The notes beneath the pieces are model-generated. The model saw only the letters and a list, made by a program, of their open reading frames with translations. It did no database searches and was not told the origin of the DNA. A DNA stretch of 64,000 nucleotides from positions 1-64,000 of the forward strand of contig MPMP01000015.1 in NCBI GenBank assembly GCA_002238565.1, in the 5' to 3' direction. Numbering within the stretch: position 1 is the first letter of the stretch; each line of letters begins with the position of its first letter. Origin of the DNA: Albidovulum sp. bin36 (GTDB lineage Bacteria; Pseudomonadota; Alphaproteobacteria; Rhodobacterales; Rhodobacteraceae). The translations under genes and the position numbers were made by a program. Below, piece after piece: positions 51,448 to 63,823 of the stretch.

Positions 51448-52656
51448 CTAGAGGACGCCATCGCGCCGATATTCCTCGATCGTCGCCTGGTCAAGCTTGA
51501 GCAAATCCGACAAAACTTGTTCGGTATCCGCTCCAAGAGCCGGCGGCGGGCGTTCTATTGACGCTGGCGTATCGCTAAGGGCGAATGGTATTCCCAGCAT
51601 TTTGATTCGGCCCGCTGTAGCGTGCTCGATATCGACGACCATATCGGAAGCCAGCGACTGAGGATCATTCAATGCGGAATTTACGTCGTTGATCGGACTG
51701 CATGGAATCTCCTGCCTCTGCAAAAGTTCAATCCAATGCGCCGTACCCCGCGTTTTCATTATGTCGCCGATCCGTCTATCGATCGCCTCGCGGTTCCGCA
51801 CGCGATCTTCATTCCGCTTGAACCGGGAATCGTCGGACCAATCCGAACGGCCCAGGCATTCTGCGAGTCTTCGGAATTGGCTATCGTTTCCTACCGCAAG
51901 CGCAATGCTTCCGTCCGAACACGAAAACGCACGGTAGGGAACTATGTTGGGATGCCCGTTTCCGAATCTGCCGGGATTTCTGCCACTTACCAGATAGTTT
52001 GAAGCAACGTTGACCAGCATGGAAAGGCTTGTGGAATGGAGAGACGCGGAAATTTTTTGCCCGCGCCCCGTCTTTTCGCGATAGTTCAGCGCGGCAAGTA
52101 TGCACATGGCCGAATACATTCCGGTACATACATCGACGATTGCCACGCCCAGCTTTACCGGCTCGCCATCCGCCGCGCCGGTAATGCTCATCAATCCGCT
52201 CTCCGCCTGCATGAGAAAGTCGTAGCCTGGCATGCCGGCGCGCGGGCCTTCGGGGCCGTAGCCTGTAATCTCGCAATGAATCAGCTGCGGCGCCTCTCGC
52301 TCACGCCACTCCCTGGTGAAACCCCATTTTTCGAGAGTCCCGGATTTAAAATTTTCGACCAGAACATCGGCTGAACAAAGCAATGACTTGAGAATTCCTT
52401 GTCCGCGTGGATCCTTGAGATTAAGCGTTATGCCCTTCTTATTTCGATTGACTCCGAGAAAATACGCTGACTCGCTTCCGGCGAACGGCGGTCCCCAATC
52501 GCGCGTATCGTCACCTTTTCCGGGCTGTTCAACCTTGATGACTTCCGCTCCGAGGTCGCCGAGATTCATCGTGCAGAAGGGCCCGGCAAGTATTCGGCTC
52601 AGATCGATGACGCGGATGCCGGAGAGGGCTCCGGGCCCAGCCGAACCAACATTCAT
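51448..52656 (-). CDS. Class III CoA-transferase (CaiB/BaiF family)
   Basis: Moves CoA from one acyl-CoA to a carboxylic acid via an Asp-bound anhydride. The start ALSGIRVIDLSRILAGPFCT then MNLGDLGAEVIKVEQPGKGD is the family signature. Catalytic Asp146 is in GMPGYDFLMQAESGLMSITG, and the end has EQVLSDLL. Length 402. Its ATG overlaps the stop of the crotonase gene (ATGA), so activation and hydration or hydrolysis of the CoA ester are produced together. Confidence 0.9.
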   Translation of the reverse strand: MNVGSAGPGALSGIRVIDLSRILAGPFCTMNLGDLGAEVIKVEQPGKGDDTRDWGPPFAGSESAYFLGVNRNKKGITLNLKDPRGQGILKSLLCSADVLVENFKSGTLEKWGFTREWREREAPQLIHCEITGYGPEGPRAGMPGYDFLMQAESGLMSITGAADGEPVKLGVAIVDVCTGMYSAMCILAALNYREKTGRGQKISASLHSTSLSMLVNVASNYLVSGRNPGRFGNGHPNIVPYRAFSCSDGSIALAVGNDSQFRRLAECLGRSDWSDDSRFKRNEDRVRNREAIDRRIGDIMKTRGTAHWIELLQRQEIPCSPINDVNSALNDPQSLASDMVVDIEHATAGRIKMLGIPFALSDTPASIERPPPALGADTEQVLSDLLKLDQATIEEYRRDGVL

Positions 52657-53537
52657 GATTTCGCTGATTTTGGGGGCGCCATGTTTTCATCGGCGGCGAG
52701 TCCTTCCAGATAATCCTGGACGACCGCGCGGTTTCGTTCCCGGAATTTTTGGAAATCAGGCTTCCTCTTTTCCAGGAAGGCATTCATGCCCTCCATCGCT
52801 TCCTCCGAGCCCCAGACGTGCGCGAGCAGTTCCATGCCCTGCTGCCAGGACGCATAAAGCTCGTCGGACTCGTGATTTAGAGATTTTTTTGTTTGGCGTA
52901 TTGTCTGCGAACTAAGCGATTTGAATTTGGCGCACCATTCTTCCGTCGCTTTTCGCAATTCTGATTTCGGGACGGCTCTGTTAATCAGCCCGATGCGAGC
53001 TGCCTCCTCGCCGCTAAAGGTTCGGCATAGGAAAATCATTTCGCGGGCAAGTCTCTCGCCAATCAGTCTCGGGAGATACTGGGTTGCTCCTACAGTCGGA
53101 CAGGCACCGACGCGAGCGCCTGTTTGCCCGAAGCGAGCGTCATCTGCGGCTATGACCAGATCGCACCAAAGCGCAAGTTCGTGTCCGCCGCCCATGCACC
53201 AGCCGTTCACCATTGCGATGACTGGAATCGGCAACCCCCGAATTGTCATGGCCAACCCTAGCATGCGATCATTCCAATGAGCGGCGTTGACCCAGTTCAA
53301 ACGCTTCATTGCAAAGAAATCGCCGCCAGCGGAAAACGCCTTATCCCCGGCCCCGGTTACAACCGCGCAGGTAATGGAGGGATCGTTGCGAGTCGACCGG
53401 AACGCGTCAATCAGTTCATCAAGAGTCTGCTCGCGAAAGGCATTTCGAACCTCGGGCCTGTTGATGGTAACCCACGCGACGTGATCGCGGACTTCATATA
53501 ATATTTCGCCGTACTTAGTTGTATTCTGCTGGTTCAT
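52653..53537 (-). CDS. Enoyl-CoA hydratase/isomerase (crotonase), BadI/MenB-like
   Basis: Crotonase-fold enzyme acting on a CoA thioester. The oxyanion-hole segments are GDKAFSAGGDFFAMKR and NGWCMGGGHELALWCDLVI. The start EILYEVRDHVAWVTINRPEV then RNAFREQTLDEL and the GQTGARVGACPTVGATQYLP loop resemble BadI (ring-opening 2-ketocyclohexanecarboxyl-CoA hydrolase) and MenB more than classic hydratases; the loop lacks the usual catalytic Glu pattern. ATG 53537 has GGAGGT 5 bases upstream and gives 294 residues. Ring opening of a cyclic CoA ester is an attractive guess. Confidence 0.87.
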   Translation of the reverse strand: MNQQNTTKYGEILYEVRDHVAWVTINRPEVRNAFREQTLDELIDAFRSTRNDPSITCAVVTGAGDKAFSAGGDFFAMKRLNWVNAAHWNDRMLGLAMTIRGLPIPVIAMVNGWCMGGGHELALWCDLVIAADDARFGQTGARVGACPTVGATQYLPRLIGERLAREMIFLCRTFSGEEAARIGLINRAVPKSELRKATEEWCAKFKSLSSQTIRQTKKSLNHESDELYASWQQGMELLAHVWGSEEAMEGMNAFLEKRKPDFQKFRERNRAVVQDYLEGLAADENMAPPKSAKS

Positions 53538-53575
53538 TGGCACCTCCATATTCAGATATTTGCATGCTCGCCGCC

Positions 53576-56150: not shown

Positions 56151-57122
56151 CTAGTTCCCTAAAGCAGCTCTGAGCAGTTCCGCTGCGTTCGCCCAGTCCT
56201 GCCTCCAAGCCGGTTCGAATTCCTCGACCAGGAATGTTGTCGGATCCTGCAGTGTCAGCTCAAACGCCTTGAGCAATGCGGGATCTTCCCTGATCTCTCG
56301 CATCGCGGCTTGTAGAGTTTCCACTTTGTCGTCCGATAAGCCGGGAGGTCCGTAAATCGCCACGGAAGACCCTGCGATAACGTCGTAGCCAAGCTCTTGC
56401 ATGGTGGGAACGTCAGGAAATTGCGCAAGACGAGAACTAGAGGCAACCGCTAGCGGGCGAAGGGTTCCGTCCTTGACGTAGCCTTCGATTTCACCGGCGT
56501 CGTCAAACAGGAGTTCGCCTTCGCCTGCGATAATCGCTCGCATTTTCGGTCCGCCGCCGCCGTGCGGATTCCACTTGAATTTTTCCGCCGACAACCCTGC
56601 CTCCTTGAGCAGCAGCAACCAGCCGTAGTGGTCGGAAGTCGCAATGTCGGAAATTTCGATCGCAATCGGACCATTCGCCTTTGCAGCCGCAATAAACGAT
56701 TCGACGCTGTCGTAGGGAGATGTTGCGCGGGTCGTCATGATCCAGGGAACGAACGATACTTGCGCGATAGGCGTAAAGTCGTCGGCATCCAGATCGAGGC
56801 CCTGCGCGATAGGCGCGATTATAGCCCCTCCGTTGTCGCAAATTGCAAGATCGTAGCCGTCGGGATCAGCATCCTTAATGTATTGCATGGCAACTGTGCC
56901 GGATCCACCGGTTCTGTATTGCGGCAGAAGCGATTGGCTAAGATATTTGGACGCGACGCGTTCTACCATCCTCAGATTTCGGTCGACTCCGCCCCCGGCC
57001 GGATAACAAGCAGCCACGCTAATTGGACGGTCCGGATACATATCTTGGGCATTTATCGCCGCGCCAGCGACCGCCATTCCGACCGCAATCGGCAACCCTA
57101 TAATTGACGAAAAAATTTTCAT
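56151..57122 (-). CDS. tctC: Tripartite tricarboxylate transporter, periplasmic binding protein (TctC/Bug family)
   Basis: Binds a carboxylated ligand in the periplasm and hands it to TctAB. Signal peptide residues 1-25. Bug-family features are YPDRPISVAACYPAGGGVDR (ligand-carboxylate loop; usually V.F.PGG..D), a GSGTVAMQYIKDADPDGYDL block, WNPHGGGGPKMRAIIAGEGE and GPPGLSDDKVETLQAAMREI. Length 323, good ribosome site GAGGAGG upstream. In this position it defines the import substrate of the cluster, probably an aromatic-derived or other organic acid. Confidence 0.9.
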   Translation of the reverse strand: MKIFSSIIGLPIAVGMAVAGAAINAQDMYPDRPISVAACYPAGGGVDRNLRMVERVASKYLSQSLLPQYRTGGSGTVAMQYIKDADPDGYDLAICDNGGAIIAPIAQGLDLDADDFTPIAQVSFVPWIMTTRATSPYDSVESFIAAAKANGPIAIEISDIATSDHYGWLLLLKEAGLSAEKFKWNPHGGGGPKMRAIIAGEGELLFDDAGEIEGYVKDGTLRPLAVASSSRLAQFPDVPTMQELGYDVIAGSSVAIYGPPGLSDDKVETLQAAMREIREDPALLKAFELTLQDPTTFLVEEFEPAWRQDWANAAELLRAALGN

Positions 57123-57388: not shown

Positions 57389-58771
57389 CTAGTCGCAATG
57401 AACGGCCGTAGCATCGATTTGGACCGCAACGGATTCAATCGGACCTGGATTTTGGACGAAGACGCAGTCGAATGCGGGTTGCGCATGCGGGTGCAATTTG
57501 GAGCGAATCGCCTCGTAAACGGCTACATCCGACTCTTCGCGAAGATAGACAACTGTCTTGGCGATGCAATCAATGCCCAAGCCCGATGCTTTGCAAGTAT
57601 CTAGCAGGCGTCGCCAAGCCCACCAAACTTGAGCCGGCAGGGAAGGCGAACTGGACGCATCTTCCAAAGAACGAATGAATTCCACTTCCGTACCTACGGA
57701 ATCCGCAGATGTCGCTATGCACCCCTTGGAATCGATGCCCAGCATGCCGGCGAAAAACAAAAGAGGCCCGGCTCTGCACGCCGCAGGACCAGAATAAGGG
57801 CGCCCGCAATTCCAGGACACGTCCGTTCGCTGAAGCCGTCCCGGCAATAGCGCGGTCGGTTCAATTTCGATTCTGCATCCCTTGTGGCCAACCTCGTCGA
57901 AACCGACGATAGTCATTGCGGGCGCAGAACTTGCAAAGAAATGCGTATGGACGCGATGAAAGATCGCTAGGTCCCGCAGGTCCGAGAGATAGACCCGAAC
58001 ATGGACAATGTCGCGCATAGACATTTCGTTAGATTCCAGCGCGCGCTGAATTTCGTTGTATACGAACCATGTCTGCGCCGCGATCGGCCCGTCGCGCGCA
58101 TCCGGATGGCTGCGTCCGGTCGCAAGGAATCGTCCTTGCTCCGGTATGTCGTCGAAACTGGCGACTACGGGTTTTCTCGGCTCGGCGGTTCGAATGGGAA
58201 TATGACCTGCAAGAAATACGAGCGGCCCGCTTGCGACCATCTGGGAATAAATCGAGGCGGATGGATTTGCCGCATGAAGAGCGGGCGTCAAAACTCGGCG
58301 GGGACCTAGATAATTGGGATGCTCCGGATCGACCGCAATGCTCTCAATTCCGTACCATCGTCCGAAACGCCCTCCCACTGAAGAAACTCCGAGGCCGCTG
58401 CTCGGCGCCGCTTCCGGCTGGCAAAACTTCCGCACGCGCTCAAGTACGGGAAAAAACCTCTTATCCTTCTGCCACATTCTCTGCCGCAGAATTTGGTCGC
58501 TTTGCGTTCCCGCGGCTTTTAGTATCGTATCCATGCGGGCATGCGCGTTCCACGCATCGGAAGTAGCGTCGCCCTCCTGCTCATCTACCAGCCAGAAGCC
58601 CTGCGAATTCTTGCTCAGGACTGAAGGCACGTCCGAGAAGGAACCGGCCTGACCGTCAGGCCTTCCTCCACGGGTCCCGGATACAAAAACAAATCCGCCG
58701 CCGCGAACGGCTAAGGGATATTCAGGCCACGCCTGCGGAACTCCCTCGGCTTGCACGGTTTTCAATGGCAT
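57389..58771 (-). CDS. Three-domain RidA (YjgF/UK114) fusion protein, copy 1
   Basis: Three RidA-like modules in tandem: residues about 13-150 (YPLAVRGGGFVFVSGTRGG to IESIAVDP), 170-310 (VASGPLVFLAGHIPI to CRIEIEPTAL) and 328-458 (CRAGPLLFFAGMLGI to AVQIDATAV). RidA proteins normally form homotrimers of 130-residue chains that hydrolyse enamines/imines at subunit interfaces. This chain could fold as a single-molecule trimer. The Arg that binds the substrate carboxylate (in P-A-R motifs) is replaced in all three modules (PSS, PAM, PAF), so classic 2-aminoacrylate deaminase activity is doubtful. Related aminomuconate deaminases suggest a role with the ACMSD-like neighbour. Length 460, stop TAG. 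Confidence 0.8.
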   Translation of the reverse strand: MPLKTVQAEGVPQAWPEYPLAVRGGGFVFVSGTRGGRPDGQAGSFSDVPSVLSKNSQGFWLVDEQEGDATSDAWNAHARMDTILKAAGTQSDQILRQRMWQKDKRFFPVLERVRKFCQPEAAPSSGLGVSSVGGRFGRWYGIESIAVDPEHPNYLGPRRVLTPALHAANPSASIYSQMVASGPLVFLAGHIPIRTAEPRKPVVASFDDIPEQGRFLATGRSHPDARDGPIAAQTWFVYNEIQRALESNEMSMRDIVHVRVYLSDLRDLAIFHRVHTHFFASSAPAMTIVGFDEVGHKGCRIEIEPTALLPGRLQRTDVSWNCGRPYSGPAACRAGPLLFFAGMLGIDSKGCIATSADSVGTEVEFIRSLEDASSSPSLPAQVWWAWRRLLDTCKASGLGIDCIAKTVVYLREESDVAVYEAIRSKLHPHAQPAFDCVFVQNPGPIESVAVQIDATAVHCD

Positions 58772-58859
58772 TTCGCAACCTCCTCAATTAGGTTTGCAGA
58801 AACTTGGCAGAAACGATCATAGCGCGCGGCCTCTCGGAGCAGTGCCAAAGCATACTCAA

Positions 58860-59849
58860 TTACATCGAAAGAAGCCTGCGCGCGTTTCCGGAAAGGATTA
58901 ATGATTGTTCGCCCGGGCTCAATCCTGAATGCTCGGTCACGAATTCGACGGGTCGCTCATAAGACATGTCAAAACAGAAGTCGCTTCCCAGCAGCACGCG
59001 GTCCGCGCCCACAACCGAGATCAAATAGTCCAGAGCCTGATGCGAATGCGTGATGGTATCGTAATAAAATCGACGAAGATAGGTTTCCGGCGACTTGTTC
59101 AGATGGCGGCATTCGGGTCGAACTCCCCAGCCATGCGTTATCCGCCCGATTAGGAATGTAAATGTTCCGCCCGCATGAGGCAGGCAAAATGTTAGCCCGG
59201 GAAACCTATCCAGCACTTCACCGAAAATTAGGTGAGACGCAGCAATCGCGGATTCCGTCGGATTTCCTATTAAATTTGTCAGGTAGAATTTCCGAAGCCT
59301 CTGCGGATCCACCACGCGAATTGGATGGAGAAAAATCGCTAGCCCTAATTCCTGGACGGCCTCGTAGACGGGGAACAGGCTTTCGTCCGACAATTCGAGA
59401 TCGCCTACGCGAGTACCCATGTAAATTCCCTTTATGCCGGGTTTGCCGGATATTCTCTCCAGCTCCTCAAGGGCTAGATCTGGATGATGAAACGGAAGCA
59501 TGGCCAGGAACGCGAATCTATCGGGGTGCGATGAGTGCGCATGAACGCAGGCATCGTTGAAAGTTTCCGACAATCGCTTGGCAAGTGAGCGCGGAGCCCA
59601 ATAGACCATTGGCTGGGTTAGCGAAAGCACATGAACGCCAACGCGCTGCTTGTCCATCGATGCCAGTCTATCTTCAATATCGTAGAACCTTTTCTCAATT
59701 GGCATGATGGTTCCGCCTATATCAATCGAAGGCGACCCGCCGGGGGGCCAGTCGCAGCTAATGCCGTGCGGCTTTCCCTCGGACTCCACCATCTTCAAGT
59801 AGGATTCGGGATAGAAGTGTGCGTGAATGTCGATGGTATCAAAAGTGTC
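58860..59849 (-). CDS. Amidohydrolase-family decarboxylase/hydrolase (ACMSD-like, amidohydrolase 2)
   Basis: TIM-barrel metal enzyme of the group containing aminocarboxymuconate-semialdehyde decarboxylase and related non-oxidative decarboxylases. Metal-binding DIHAHFYPESYL gives His10 and His12; FLHPIRVVDPQRL supplies a His; the second-shell CLPHAGGTFTFLIGR and the catalytic Asp in VLLGSDFCFDMSYE follow. ATG 59849 is preferred because the HxH motif follows closely and GGAGG lies upstream, though a GTG at 59897 would add 16 residues. It is the first gene of the minus-strand cluster, divergent from the second RidA fusion. Confidence 0.83.
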   Translation of the reverse strand, partial: DTFDTIDIHAHFYPESYLKMVESEGKPHGISCDWPPGGSPSIDIGGTIMPIEKRFYDIEDRLASMDKQRVGVHVLSLTQPMVYWAPRSLAKRLSETFNDACVHAHSSHPDRFAFLAMLPFHHPDLALEELERISGKPGIKGIYMGTRVGDLELSDESLFPVYEAVQELGLAIFLHPIRVVDPQRLRKFYLTNLIGNPTESAIAASHLIFGEVLDRFPGLTFCLPHAGGTFTFLIGRITHGWGVRPECRHLNKSPETYLRRFYYDTITHSHQALDYLISVVGADRVLLGSDFCFDMSYERPVEFVTEHSGLSPGEQSLILSGNARRLLSM

Positions 59850-60184
59850 CATGGCGATTGCGGCGCCTCCGTTCACTGCAACAGCGGAAACCCCCACGTC
59901 ACACGGTGCTTGAGAACGCCGGAGCGAGAGTTCGAATTATTGGCGCCCACTCTACCCTACAAGCATCGCTCCGTCCAGAATTTGCAGGACATTCTAACGA
60001 TTGGCTGAAATTCCACCGGTCTATCCGGATCTTGCGCGACGCTATAAACCAAGCCTTGTCCGAAATTCCAAATCCGATAGTGTTGACGCATTCCATGCAG
60101 CGGCTTTGGTTAAGCCCCGTTCGTTTCGAGTATGCGGAGGTGCAATGACCAATGGAATCGAACAAGGAGGAGGAGTAAACTAAG
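59850..60184. other. Divergent regulatory gap between the amidohydrolase and the second RidA fusion
   Basis: About 335 bases that should hold promoters for both arms of the catabolic locus. I see no gene, and no -35/-10 pair that I would defend. The run of GGAGG repeats at 60165-60175 is the ribosome site of the plus-strand gene. Confidence 0.4.
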
Positions 60185-61474
60185 ATGAAAATCGAATTCG
60201 CGCATCATCCCGACGCACCGGCCGGCTCGCCGCCGCTCGCAGCTAGGGCGGGCGATCATGTCTTCGTCGGCGGCCAATTGGCAGCCCATCCGATTCAAGG
60301 AATTCCAAGCGAAGCGAAACTGCTGCCAAACTATTATTGGCACGGGTCAAGCATTCACAAGCAACTCACTTATATTTATTCGAATTTGGACAATGTCCTG
60401 AAGGGCCTCGGCTCTTCGCTTGGAAAATGCGTCAAGATCAATTCCTACCATACCGACCCTTCGGAAGTGGATATGGCCTTGCGAGTAAGGAAAGAGTGGT
60501 TCGATATCGAGGGACCACCGCCGAGCAGTTTGCTGATAGTTCCCGAATTGCCGGTTCACGGCGCATCGGTTTCCCTGGATATGACGACGCTTGCGGATGA
60601 TTCAGAGCTGGGCCGCGAATTGGTCCAGATCAAAAGCGTCCAGCAAATCGGACAGGTCGCGGCGATTGGCTGGTCGGTGTATTCGCAGGCGGTCCGAGGC
60701 GGCGGCTTCGTATTCACTCGAGGCACAACGCCCACCGGTCCGCGCGGTCCTATCGATGAAATCGTGCCGCATCCCGAATTGAGATATCGGCGCAATCCTA
60801 TTCGATTTCAAACCGAATACGTTCTCGATTATTTGAAGATGCTGCTCGACGACGCCGGCTGCACGCTCGGCGATGTCGTCAGGGCAGAAATATACTTGGT
60901 AGATATGTCGGATTTTGCAGTATTTGATGAGGTTTGGAGTCGGTATTTTCCGGATGACCCACCGGCGCGGATCGTTATCCAGTCTCCTTTGGCAGTCCCT
61001 CACTGCGTCGTTGAAATCGAATTGGTTGCCGTCGACCCCGCCGGACCATACAAGAAGGAAATAATATCCACCTGCAATGCGCCAACGCCGCTGGGTTCGG
61101 AACCGCAAGCCGTTCGTGCCGGCCCATTCCTCTTCCTATCCTCCCAGCTTGCTTCCGACTACGAGAACGGCTTGGCCGAGGAGGCTCGAATCGATCCAAA
61201 TTTTCCGTTTCACGCGAACGCGTCCAAACTGCAGACTCTGTACATCCTGAAGAATGTTCGAGCGATTTGCGAGGCCGCCGGCACAAGCATTGGAAATCTT
61301 GTCAAAAGGCGCGCAATACACACGGATCTGAATGACTTCCCGGAGGCTGAAGTTCACTGGCGAAACGCCATCCCAAATCGTGTGCCGCCCACGACGGCAT
61401 TTCGCACGAGCGGTCCACTTGCAGTACCCGGATGCACTGTCATGTATGATCTGACGGCCGCAGTCGAAGACTAG
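60185..61474 (+). CDS. Three-domain RidA (YjgF/UK114) fusion protein, copy 2
   Basis: 429 residues with three RidA-like modules: about 18-136, 165-285 and 305-427, each showing the ...GPFLFLSSQL-type first strand and a ...VEIELVAV-type last strand. Only the middle module keeps the RidA carboxylate-binding Arg (Arg262, in PPARIVIQSPLAV) with the catalytic Glu (Glu277) 15 residues later, the spacing of Arg105-Glu120 in enteric RidA. In the first and third modules Arg is replaced (PPSS, PPTT). The protein may thus be a one-chain trimer with one canonical site. Strong ribosome site AAGGAGGAGGAG. It diverges from the amidohydrolase and RidA copy 1 genes. Stop TAG. Confidence 0.82.
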   Translation: MKIEFAHHPDAPAGSPPLAARAGDHVFVGGQLAAHPIQGIPSEAKLLPNYYWHGSSIHKQLTYIYSNLDNVLKGLGSSLGKCVKINSYHTDPSEVDMALRVRKEWFDIEGPPPSSLLIVPELPVHGASVSLDMTTLADDSELGRELVQIKSVQQIGQVAAIGWSVYSQAVRGGGFVFTRGTTPTGPRGPIDEIVPHPELRYRRNPIRFQTEYVLDYLKMLLDDAGCTLGDVVRAEIYLVDMSDFAVFDEVWSRYFPDDPPARIVIQSPLAVPHCVVEIELVAVDPAGPYKKEIISTCNAPTPLGSEPQAVRAGPFLFLSSQLASDYENGLAEEARIDPNFPFHANASKLQTLYILKNVRAICEAAGTSIGNLVKRRAIHTDLNDFPEAEVHWRNAIPNRVPPTTAFRTSGPLAVPGCTVMYDLTAAVED

Positions 61475-61520: not shown

Positions 61521-61904
61521 TCACACCATTTCAGGTTCGATCTGGCCGCTGTGCGACTTTAGCATATCGGCGGCGTTTCCGGTGAGGGCGATCTGGATGG
61601 CGACGAGGGGGTTGTATCCGAGCGCCTCCATCGAGCTCAGGTAGCTTGATATCCGGCACCAGGCCTCGGCGAAGTGCTGGGTGCGGAAGCATCCGGACAC
61701 CTTCATCTTGACTTTCGCCATCCTGATTTTCGGCTCGCCGGCGTTGTTGGTGAAGCTGACGACCGGCTCCGCCATGAAGCGCAGCACGGACTCCTCGTGC
61801 TTCGCAAGGTGCTCGTGCAGGTTGTGCGCGTCCGACTTCGCGATCCGCTCCCTGTACGCCAAGAAACTCGTTTTACGAAACACCCTTGGTCTTGGCCCCG
61901 GCAT
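61521..61904 (-). pseudogene. IS66-family transposase fragment (C-terminal)
   Basis: The minus strand reads HNLHEHLAKHEESVLRFMAE, VSFTNNAGEPKIRMAKVKMK and VSGCFRTQHFAEAWCRISSY. These are the C-terminal blocks of IS66 TnpC (normally FTNN.AE...R..KVK.K.SGGFR). The catalytic Glu of FTNNxAE reads GE in this copy, but the SGGFR Gly is changed to Cys. Most of the 500-residue protein is missing. A relic marking a past insertion next to the catabolic locus. Confidence 0.75.
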
Positions 61905-62017: not shown

Positions 62018-62797
62018 TCAGGGGAGGGGAGCGACCCGCTGCCGGCCGGTGTAGTCGCCGCCGCGTAGCATCGCTACCTCGCGCAGCTCGTCCGGTGCGT
62101 GACGGTCGCGATCGCGTCCCGCGCCGCGTGGATTGCCGGTCACCCGGACGAACGGCGCGCTTATACGCGGCGTCAGGCCGACACGCGGTTGCGACGTATG
62201 ATTGGGGCCCGAGGAGTGCACGGTGTTCTCGTTGAACAGCACGAACTCCCCGGGACGCAGTACCGGCGCGCGTACCAAGTTGTAGTCGATTGCTTCTTCC
62301 GGAACAGAGCGATCGAACTCGAATCTCCCCGGATCGATGTCGTGATCGAATGTTTTTAGGTGAGAACCGGCGACCACCTGTAAACAGCCATTTTCCTTGG
62401 TCGATTCGGTAATGGCGATCCAGGCCGACACCAAAATCTGCGGCTGGAGGTCGTAGTATGCGCCATCCTGATGCCACGGTACCTTCGTGTAGATTTGCGC
62501 ATTTCCGACAGCCCTTGCCGCCGGTTGCTTAACCTGAAAATACGAGCACCATATCATCAGGTCGGGACCGAGCAGAGATGCCACGCGATCGGTCAATTCC
62601 GGGCGGCGGCAGATCCGGCTCACGGTGCTGTGATCTAGATGGCGGTCATGATAGTCCAGATCGGGGTCGGTGGCGCCTGGGCCGATAATCTCCCGATCAA
62701 TCCCGGCCCATGCCTCATCCATCTCTGCGGGAGACAGCAGTGAGTAGGGTCCTATTACACCGTCACGGTGATAGGCTTCCACCTCGGATTTGCTCAA
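62018..62797 (-). CDS. Phytanoyl-CoA dioxygenase family (PhyH) Fe(II)/2-oxoglutarate oxygenase
   Basis: Non-haem iron oxygenase that would hydroxylate an unactivated carbon. The iron-binding HxD is in VPWHQDGAYYDLQPQ, and the distal His and 2-oxoglutarate Arg are in ENTVHSSGPNHTSQPRVGLT. The N terminus ALSKSEVEAYHRDGVI is the usual PhyH opening. No ATG fits; the TTG at 62797 is the likeliest start. The same frame continues upstream without a stop for 35 codons to the TGA of an IS630 relic, so the native start may have been lost by insertion. Length about 259. Substrate unknown. Confidence 0.82.
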   Translation of the reverse strand: MSKSEVEAYHRDGVIGPYSLLSPAEMDEAWAGIDREIIGPGATDPDLDYHDRHLDHSTVSRICRRPELTDRVASLLGPDLMIWCSYFQVKQPAARAVGNAQIYTKVPWHQDGAYYDLQPQILVSAWIAITESTKENGCLQVVAGSHLKTFDHDIDPGRFEFDRSVPEEAIDYNLVRAPVLRPGEFVLFNENTVHSSGPNHTSQPRVGLTPRISAPFVRVTGNPRGAGRDRDRHAPDELREVAMLRGGDYTGRQRVAPLP

Positions 62798-63046: not shown

Positions 63047-63823
63047 TCAGATTTTTTTCGGGAAGTGCGACGCTTTCGTTCGCTTGTGAAGTTCGCGTAG
63101 CACCGTCAATTCCTCGTCGCTAGGAGGCTCGGTTATTTCGACTTGCTCGGCGAACTTTATGTTCCAGTCAACAGAGGCATGCATCTGCGCCCTGGTTACG
63201 CCGGGATGCAATGACACGACCGTAAGTTCCTTGGATGCGGGATCTGGCTTCCAAATCGCCAAGTCGGTAAATAGAACAACGGGACCGGCTGTCAAAATAC
63301 CCGCTTCGCTCCTCGACAGTCCGCCTTCACCGAAACCGAATGAAGTTCGAAAATCCAATTCCTTCCTAAAGGATCGTCTTGATTGCCTGACAATTAGGTG
63401 AATTCGATCGCAGGATGTCGCGATTTCCGGCGCTCCGCCGCCGCCCGGCAACCGAACTTTGGGTGCATGGTAGTCGCCAATGATCGTCGTATTAATGTTT
63501 CCGAACCTGTCGATTTGGGCCGCGCTTAAGACGCCGATGTCGATATGTCCTCCTTGAAGCCAATAGCAGAACATTTCGGGCACCGAAACGGTGCACAGGG
63601 CTGTCTCGCACAGCTCTCCGTCGCCAACCGAGAGAGGCAGGTTTCGCGGCCGGGCCCGGACAGCACCGGACTCGTAAATCAACACGAGATCAGGAGCATG
63701 AACCGCGCGCGCAAGATTGCACGCCTCGGACGGAGGCCCAACACCCGCAAAGCAAACATCGCCTTCGGCAAGCGAACGGGAAGCCGCAACCGTCATCATC
63801 TCAATGGGAGTGTAGCCAGTCAT
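63047..63823 (-). CDS. Two-subunit CoA-transferase, beta subunit (glutaconate/3-oxoacid CoA-transferase type)
   Basis: Transfers CoA between carboxylic acids together with the alpha subunit encoded just upstream. Family marks are PIEMMTVAASRSLAEGDVCF, AGVGPPSEACNLARAVHAPD, LIYESGAV, HIDIGVLSAAQIDRFGNINT and the glycine-rich LPGGGGAPEIATSCDRIHL. The catalytic Glu of this class is expected in the ESG block (YESGAV, near residue 51). Length 258. Its ATG overlaps the stop of the alpha-subunit gene. Probably feeds CoA to acids made by the neighbouring pathway. Confidence 0.87.
   Translation of the reverse strand: MTGYTPIEMMTVAASRSLAEGDVCFAGVGPPSEACNLARAVHAPDLVLIYESGAVRARPRNLPLSVGDGELCETALCTVSVPEMFCYWLQGGHIDIGVLSAAQIDRFGNINTTIIGDYHAPKVRLPGGGGAPEIATSCDRIHLIVRQSRRSFRKELDFRTSFGFGEGGLSRSEAGILTAGPVVLFTDLAIWKPDPASKELTVVSLHPGVTRAQMHASVDWNIKFAEQVEITEPPSDEELTVLRELHKRTKASHFPKKI

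What the first reader, a model, noticed from the sequence alone, without database searches (positions are those of the whole stretch)
57389..61474. Two divergent three-domain RidA fusion proteins that look like single-chain trimers
RidA enzymes are normally homotrimers of 130-residue chains. Here two genes each encode three RidA modules in one chain (460 and 429 residues). In copy 2 only the middle module keeps the carboxylate-binding Arg262 and Glu277, with the same 15-residue spacing as Arg105-Glu120 in enteric RidA. Copy 1 has lost the Arg in all modules. This suggests pseudo-trimers with one specialised site and structural or substrate-selective partners, possibly acting as a pair. I do not know of a described pathway using such a pair.
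Basis: partly seen in the sequence, partly recalled or inferred. Interest (0 to 1): 0.75.

Follow-up and report, generated by a model that had tools for sequence, protein, structure and literature searches.

The report
Two three-in-one Rid enzymes
Two neighbouring bacterial genes each string three small Rid-enzyme modules into one chain, predicted to fold into a one-chain version of the usual three-part enzyme; one keeps the classic Rid site in a single module, while the other lacks the key arginine in all three modules and carries a different, strongly conserved residue set, so it likely does a different reaction in the breakdown of an imported organic acid.

Summary

Three-domain fusions are known ('3x-RidA', 2015), so the architecture is not new. 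New, as far as searched: the Arg-less copy 1 family, copy 2's one-site asymmetry, and their setting. They flank an ACMSD-like decarboxylase gene beside a TctABC importer and CoA-ester genes. In 31 copy 1 loci, TctA lies within about 2 kb in 16. Copy 1 is not tied to copy 2: no copy 2-type protein was found in 16 of 30 genomes.

Likely: copy 2 is a one-site imine deaminase, copy 1 a non-imine hydrolase or isomerase in import-linked carboxylate catabolism. Substrate unknown.

The parts
57389..58771 (-). Copy 1 (RID_A): Arg-less three-module Rid protein, 460 aa
58304..58771 (-). Copy 1 module 1 (residues 1-156); invariant R34, D63, H77, W100, D103-K104-R105, E111, R114, S125
   Evidence: 92 of 92 aligned rows; in all 120 listed hits R34 and D63 have one exception each; module boundary set by me from the alignment
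57836..58303 (-). Copy 1 module 2 (residues 157-312); invariant Y175, Q233, W235, D267, H272, H275, E293, H296, E302, E304
   Evidence: 92 of 92, no exception in all 120 listed hits; matches PDB 3lyb, 33% identity, rmsd 1.3, 134 residues
58094..58135 (-). Invariant loop GRF..TGRSHPD.R (residues 213-226), part of an insertion absent from the genome's own canonical RidA
   Evidence: R214, R220, S221, H222, D224, R226 in 92 of 92; R214 has one exception among all 120 listed; the SGQ-to-helix segment is 42 residues here and 15 in the own RidA
57389..57835 (-). Copy 1 module 3 (residues 313-460); invariant W320, Q381, Q451
   Evidence: 92 of 92; Q381 and Q451 have one exception each among all 120 listed
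58860..59897 (-). ACMSD-like decarboxylase gene (Amidohydro_2) between the two Rid genes
   Evidence: PF04909 125.2 bits; the 13 best of 45 PDB matches are 2-amino-3-carboxymuconate-6-semialdehyde decarboxylase, best E 2.7e-53
60185..61474 (+). Copy 2 (RID_B): three-module Rid protein with one Arg/Glu site, 429 aa
60614..61045 (+). Copy 2 module 2 (residues 144-287), the only one with R262 (60968-60970) and E277 (61013-61015)
   Evidence: R262 in 69 of 69 and E277 in 68 of 69 close rows
56151..57122 (-). TctC-type substrate-binding protein of a tripartite tricarboxylate transporter
   Evidence: PF03401
55646..56122 (-). TctB
   Evidence: PF07331
54104..55627 (-). TctA
   Evidence: PF01970, 457.5 bits
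53576..54019 (-). VOC protein of the methylmalonyl-CoA epimerase family
   Evidence: TIGR03081 135.4 bits, cut-off 114.95
52653..53549 (-). Enoyl-CoA hydratase family protein, nearest MenB/BadI models
   Evidence: PF00378; best NCBIfam models MenB and BadI, below their cut-offs
51448..52656 (-). Class III CoA-transferase
   Evidence: PF02515, 438.2 bits
50256..51353 (-). Mandelate racemase/muconate lactonising family enzyme
   Evidence: PF13378, PF02746; muconate cycloisomerase subfamily model below cut-off

Best explanation
These are two three-module Rid proteins, each predicted to fold as a one-chain Rid trimer, whose genes flank an ACMSD-like decarboxylase gene next to a TctABC importer and CoA-ester genes; copy 2 likely deaminates an imine or enamine at its single Arg262/Glu277 site, and copy 1, which lacks that arginine in every module, likely catalyses a different, non-imine hydrolysis or isomerisation of the imported acid or of a compound made from it. 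Shown by sequence: the Rid family match, the single Arg/Glu site of copy 2, the absence of Arg and the 29 conserved polar residues of copy 1, and the gene order. Predicted: closure into a pseudo-trimer, by AlphaFold2 models that match chorismatase over nearly their whole length. Inferred: copy 1's active site lies at a cleft between modules and uses the conserved Arg/His/Asp/Glu set of modules 1 and 2; copy 2 acts after the decarboxylase on an amino-substituted unsaturated acid; the product passes into the CoA-ester steps. The substrate is unknown.
Against: No ligand, no assay and no atomic coordinates: I could not show that copy 1's conserved residues meet in one pocket. The 92 and 120 rows are the top of 373 hits, so the family's far relatives were not examined. 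Some copy 1 loci hold a transporter but no ACMSD-like or CoA-ester gene recognised within the fetched flank (for example L060, L073), so the pathway differs or is incomplete. Seven loci (five titled Nitrospinota or Nitrospinae) have neither TctA nor the epimerase nearby but an SDR gene and a branched-chain-type ABC transporter. About 10% of ordinary RidA have Ser in place of Arg, and replacing Glu120 had little effect in Salmonella RidA, so neither residue alone decides the reaction. The ACMSD-like protein lacks Arg at the human Arg47 position, so its product may not be an aminomuconate and copy 2's substrate is unsure.
Confidence: 0.5

Rival explanations
1. Copy 1 is a catalytically dead, structural or regulatory partner of copy 2, for example one half of a mixed complex.
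For: All three canonical Arg positions are lost, and the genes are near neighbours in the window, L053, L054 and L057.
Against: 29 polar residues invariant in 92 of 92 aligned rows is not what a dead partner shows; no copy 2-type protein was found at E 1e-40 in 16 of 30 genomes with copy 1, some of them possibly incomplete.
Confidence: 0.12
2. The cluster is a variant 3-hydroxyanthranilate/2-aminophenol type pathway: the ACMSD-like enzyme makes an aminomuconate semialdehyde and copy 2 is the 2-aminomuconate deaminase.
For: ACMSD structures are the best PDB matches of the middle gene; copy 2 module 2 matches AmnE; a distant copy 2-type relative in L109 also neighbours an ACMSD-like gene 49% identical to this one, though that relative lacks Arg in module 2.
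Against: None of the ten proteins scanned from 50 to 61 kb is a 3-HAO dioxygenase or a semialdehyde dehydrogenase. The 3-HAO family gave no match in the genome, but its controls were silent too, so this says little. Arg47 of human ACMSD is not kept in the window protein or in the 4 other distinct proteins compared. AmnE is only the third-best solved match of copy 2.
Confidence: 0.15
3. Both are ordinary damage-control RidA enzymes in 3x form, with no pathway-specific role.
For: 3x-RidA proteins are known, and 17 of 93 aligned copy 2 rows have Arg in all three modules.
Against: Those 17 are only 31-36% identical to copy 2, and the modules of the four of them put in the tree form their own clade (97/95). 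The genome has a canonical single RidA elsewhere. Copy 1 lacks the Arg that activity needs, and copy 1 stands beside importer genes in 16 of 31 loci by TctA alone.
Confidence: 0.1
4. Copy 1 is a ring-opening or enol-ether hydrolase, like cyanuric acid hydrolase or chorismatase, acting first on an imported ring compound.
Against: Chorismatase identity is only 13% and no chorismatase appears among the sequence matches. A shared fold shows no function, and copy 2 matches chorismatase almost as well.
Confidence: 0.2

Closest known systems
3x-RidA (Niehaus et al. 2015, PMC4433059; example EF_0115)
   Same: Three Rid domains in tandem, presumed to be covalently linked trimers
   Different: Defined within the Arg-bearing RidA subfamily. 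Copy 2 keeps the Arg in one module only and copy 1 in none; copy 1 has an inserted conserved loop and a catabolic setting that I did not find described. EF_0115 itself was not compared.
Chorismatase (PDB 4bps, 5a3k, 5ag3)
   Same: One chain of the Rid-trimer type; best structural match of both models
   Different: 12-15% identity; not among the sequence matches of either protein; no chorismate-pathway family among the ten window proteins
Cyanuric acid hydrolase / barbiturase, Toblerone fold (PMC3758960)
   Same: Described as three concatenated YjgF-type units repurposed for hydrolysis
2-Aminomuconate deaminase AmnE (PDB 6izh, PMC6742747)
   Same: Copy 2 module 2 matches it, Arg and Glu kept
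   Different: AmnE is a hexamer of single modules; copy 2 has one such Arg/Glu site per chain
KP1_3112 of Klebsiella (PDB 3lyb), uncharacterised single-module Rid
   Same: Copy 1 module 2: 33% identity, rmsd 1.3 over 134 residues, with a similar loop
   Different: A single module of unknown function, called only a putative endoribonuclease

Membership tests
Rid family (PF01042) | Match over the curated cut-off | tested here: met
   91.6 and 140.2 bits against 27.3
3x-RidA | Three Rid modules in tandem in one chain | tested here: met
   Copy 2 by Pfam (three stretches); copy 1 by Pfam (two stretches) plus predicted structure
3x-RidA | Modules of the RidA subfamily with the catalytic Arg | tested here: not met
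   Copy 1: Arg in 0 of 92 rows at any module. Copy 2: in module 2 only. So neither is filed as a typical 3x-RidA.
3x-RidA | Covalently linked trimer in reality | not testable with these tools
   Predicted only: pTM 0.94 for both
Rid detoxifying hydrolase TIGR00004 | Score over 106.25 | tested here: inconclusive
   Copy 2 133.4, over, summed over three stretches; copy 1 79.1, under
Imine-deaminating Rid (RidA, Rid1-Rid3) | Arg105 and Glu120 | tested here: inconclusive
   Copy 2 module 2 has both; copy 1 keeps only the Glu, in module 2 (E302)
Chorismatase | One-chain fold of Rid-trimer type | tested here: met
Chorismatase | Chorismate hydrolysis and its active-site residues | not tested
   No coordinates and no residue-level structural alignment available
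Cyanuric acid hydrolase (Toblerone) | Three Ser-Lys pairs around a threefold site | tested here: inconclusive
ACMSD (middle gene) | Sequence relationship and HxH metal motif | tested here: met
   E 2.7e-53 to ACMSD 4ign; DIHAH kept in the window and 4 of 4 other distinct proteins compared (L054, L055, L057, L109)
ACMSD (middle gene) | Arg47 (human numbering and role recalled), substrate binding | tested here: not met
   The aligned residue is Met in the window and not Arg in the 4 others; so only ACMSD-like

The most novel reading that the evidence does not exclude
Copy 1 founds a new class of enzyme: a one-chain Rid pseudo-trimer that has given up imine chemistry and built a new Arg/His/Asp/Glu active site between unlike modules, the first cytoplasmic step of an undescribed import-linked carboxylate pathway spread over Alpha- and Betaproteobacteria and further phyla. 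Copy 2 shows the half-way stage: a trimer in one chain with two sites silenced and one kept.
Probability: 0.35. Interest if true: 0.72.

Novelty: new variant of a known kind. Interest (0 to 1): 0.52.

Why it matters
Symmetric trimers such as RidA must carry three equal sites. Putting the trimer into one chain lets the sites diverge, and the relatives collected here show three states: three Arg sites (17 of 93 rows of the copy 2 alignment), one (copy 2 and its close relatives), and none but new conserved residues (copy 1 and its 91 aligned relatives). That makes a general question, how a homotrimeric enzyme turns into an asymmetric one, directly testable. Copy 1 is also an orphan family with catalytic-looking conservation whose members, where the sources give a specific name, are mostly called RidA family protein, enamine deaminase or iminobutanoate deaminase, probably wrongly as to function.

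Tried and rejected
A 'fusion' of copy 1 with the epimerase-type VOC protein (P0113) first looked like strong linkage evidence. A dedicated search found this form once among 24 hits, and its junction loses the end of copy 1's last strand and runs through what looks like a separate VOC start. I treat it as a probable frameshift joining neighbouring genes, so it counts only as adjacency.

In the copy 2 alignment, 17 rows seemed to have Arg in module 1 and Thr in module 2. This was a register error: those rows have Arg in all three modules. Over all 120 listed copy 2 hits, a two-column check gave 96 with Arg in module 2 alone, 21 in modules 1 and 2, 2 in none and 1 in modules 2 and 3; I did not look at the 21 one by one for module 3.

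One or two triplications: copy 1 modules group together with 89/88 support, but pairing module 1 with 1, 2 with 2 and 3 with 3 across the copies is not rejected (p-AU 0.24, 0.13, 0.21). Profile comparison aligns the two families module by module, which both histories would give. Unresolved. The first tree held single Rids apparently read in a wrong frame (L002, L003, L008) and is discarded.

Circularity: the scan found its loci by two peptide patterns taken from copy 1's own conserved motifs, so seeing those motifs in these loci is partly by construction and I do not count it as evidence of conservation. Loci lacking the patterns were missed.

Fisher test of a copy 2-type protein in 14 of 30 copy 1 genomes against 2 of 367 class genomes (p 7e-16): the groups differ in taxonomy, relatedness and cut-off (1e-40 against 1e-50), and one of the 2 is the window's own genome, so I do not lean on the p-value. 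The copy 2-type proteins in it include Arg-less relatives.

Plasmid searches with both proteins found nothing at E 1e-20. 3-HAO in the own genome: no match, controls silent. TdcF paper PMC1884159: the searched residue names do not occur in that form. A Men-type pathway (MenB/MenC/MenE-like neighbours in L071) was considered, but those scores lie under the equivalog cut-offs. The regex count of Arg sites is cruder than the column count and is used only for the 17 symmetric rows.

Rows dropped: alignment A1 uses 91 of the 120 listed of 373 hits, plus the window; A2 uses 92 of the 120 listed of 234, plus the window. I left out short or partial rows and thinned the rest by hand; one search then rechecked all 120 of each. 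The 'close' copy 2 set is the first 69 of 93 rows (window to P0207).
Full report
What is there. Copy 1 (57389-58771, minus, 460 aa) and copy 2 (60185-61474, plus, 429 aa) are intact open frames whose only Pfam family is PF01042. Left of copy 1, on the same strand and mostly closely spaced (gaps of -4 to 94 bases, 266 between copy 1 and TctC), follow TctC, TctB and TctA of a tripartite tricarboxylate transporter, a VOC protein over the cut-off for methylmalonyl-CoA epimerase, an enoyl-CoA hydratase family protein, a class III CoA-transferase and a muconate-cycloisomerase-like protein. Copy 2 is read away from the middle gene across a gap of 287 bases.

Sites. In RidA the active site lies at the interface between monomers, with a Tyr, the Arg and a Glu around the bound acid (PMC7311433, passage seen). 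At the Arg position copy 2 has Ser, Arg262 and Thr in modules 1 to 3. In its close relatives (first 69 of 93 rows) Arg262 is kept in 69 and Glu277 in 68; Arg stands in module 1 in none and in module 3 in one. Seventeen more distant rows have Arg in all three modules. Copy 1 has S125, M286 and F434; none of 92 rows, and none of all 120 listed hits, has Arg at any of the three. Yet 49 columns, 29 of them polar, are invariant in all 92 rows: 15 in module 1, 27 in module 2 and 7 in module 3. In all 120 listed hits, 24 of the 29 polar positions have no exception and five have one each. They include the position aligned with an Asn of the own RidA (E111 and H272 invariant, E420 Glu or Asp) and the Glu120 position (G141, E302, Q451), so the three canonical pockets have become chemically unlike. 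Module 2 carries an inserted loop (GRF..TGRSHPD.R) that the genome's own canonical RidA lacks (42 against 15 residues), and resembles the uncharacterised 3lyb. This is the pattern of an enzyme with a new site, not of decay. Whether these residues share one cleft is inferred. The rows are the top of 373 hits; farther relatives were not examined.

Relatives and setting. A scan of a collection of 84,980 species genomes, by two peptide patterns from copy 1's own motifs, gave 31 copy 1 loci, in 30 genomes by their record names, titled as Rhodobacteraceae, Rhizobiales, SAR116 and OCS116 bacteria, betaproteobacteria, Nitrospinota, an actinobacterium and others. TctA lies within about 2 kb in 16 of 31; the epimerase-type VOC gene is 5-68 bases away in 4 and within 4 kb in 3 more; an ACMSD-like gene is within 0.5 kb in all 5 loci with copy 1 of 64-69% identity. 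A TauE/SafE-type permease follows copy 1 within 45 bases in 4 and at about 0.65 kb in a fifth. In L064 and L071 the cluster holds copy 1, the VOC protein, a LysR regulator, an acyl-CoA ligase, a hydrolase, a hydratase 68-69% identical to the window's and a muconate-type enzyme. Seven loci, five of them titled Nitrospinota or Nitrospinae, instead have an SDR gene and a branched-chain-type ABC transporter. The recurring factor is an importer of small organic solutes near copy 1.

Pairing. Copy 2 with its Arg lies within 4 kb of copy 1 in the window, L053, L054 and L057. L055 and L056 (genomes of 3.6 and 3.4 Mb) have the copy 1 cluster and no copy 2-type protein at E 1e-40. In L111 and L118 copy 1 neighbours another three-module Rid without the Arg. 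A copy 2-type protein occurs in 14 of 30 copy 1 genomes; absences may partly reflect incomplete bins. Both families are rare at large: copy 1 in 1 of 367 and copy 2 in 2 of 367 class genomes at E 1e-50, the window's own genome counted in both, with few candidates scored per genome, and copy 2 in 3 of 295 family genomes at E 1e-60. The Arg-bearing pair is a feature of one lineage in what I sampled, not an obligate unit.

Mechanism. Niehaus et al. (PMC4433059, section 5 read) report that changing the Arg to Ala almost abolished imine hydrolysis in plant and Salmonella RidA and presume that Rid groups without it serve other functions; they also note that about 10% of RidA have Ser there and that replacing the Tyr or Glu had little effect. 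On that basis copy 2 likely hydrolyses an imine or enamine at one site per chain; its module 2 matches AmnE, third after two uncharacterised single Rids. Copy 1 likely does something else. The ring-opening amide hydrolysis of the Toblerone family (PMC3758960, passages seen) and chorismate conversion (title of the chorismatase entries) show what a concatenated Rid trimer can become. The middle gene is only ACMSD-like: it keeps the metal motif but not Arg at the human Arg47 position (numbering recalled), so a strict aminomuconate pathway is not shown.

Known and new. Three-domain Rid fusions and the idea that they are linked trimers are known, so the architecture is not novel. New, as far as the searches went, are the Arg-less copy 1 family with its conserved residues, the one-site asymmetry of copy 2, and the import-linked cluster. 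I rate it a new variant of a known kind.

Noticed in passing
L073, L074, L075, L077, L082 against the window: The TctA next to copy 1 is 79-80% and TctC 77-78% identical to the window's, while copy 1 itself is only 42-43% identical, as if the importer moved or was kept with a different copy 1 paralogue.
   Followed up: partly
L060, L066, L068, L069, L070: A TauE/SafE-type permease gene follows copy 1; in L060 the ABC importer beside it scores weakly (below cut-off) with aliphatic-sulfonate models, hinting at a sulfonate in some lineages.
   Followed up: partly
61521-61904: Fragment of an IS66-type transposase directly beside copy 2.
   Followed up: no
62018-62797 and 63047-63823, continuing to L009:3820-4707: PhyH-type oxygenase, matching a chlorinating-enzyme model well below its cut-off, and what look like two CoA-transferase subunits downstream of copy 2 on the other strand; the first subunit was matched to PF01144, the second was read only by position and gave no NCBIfam match.
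   Followed up: no
L009:9988-10434 (contig C164, 70.0 kb, outside the window): A single-module Rid with Ser at the canonical Arg position, next to an SBP/ATPase/permease set; in L053, L057 and L108 it and that set stand near copy 2.
   Followed up: partly
L111 and L118 genomes (G348, G338): Four copy 2-type three-module Rid matches per genome, one of G348's cut by a contig end, several beside TctC genes.
   Followed up: partly
own genome, contig C197:13688-14020: Another Rid match inside a 504-residue open frame.
   Followed up: no
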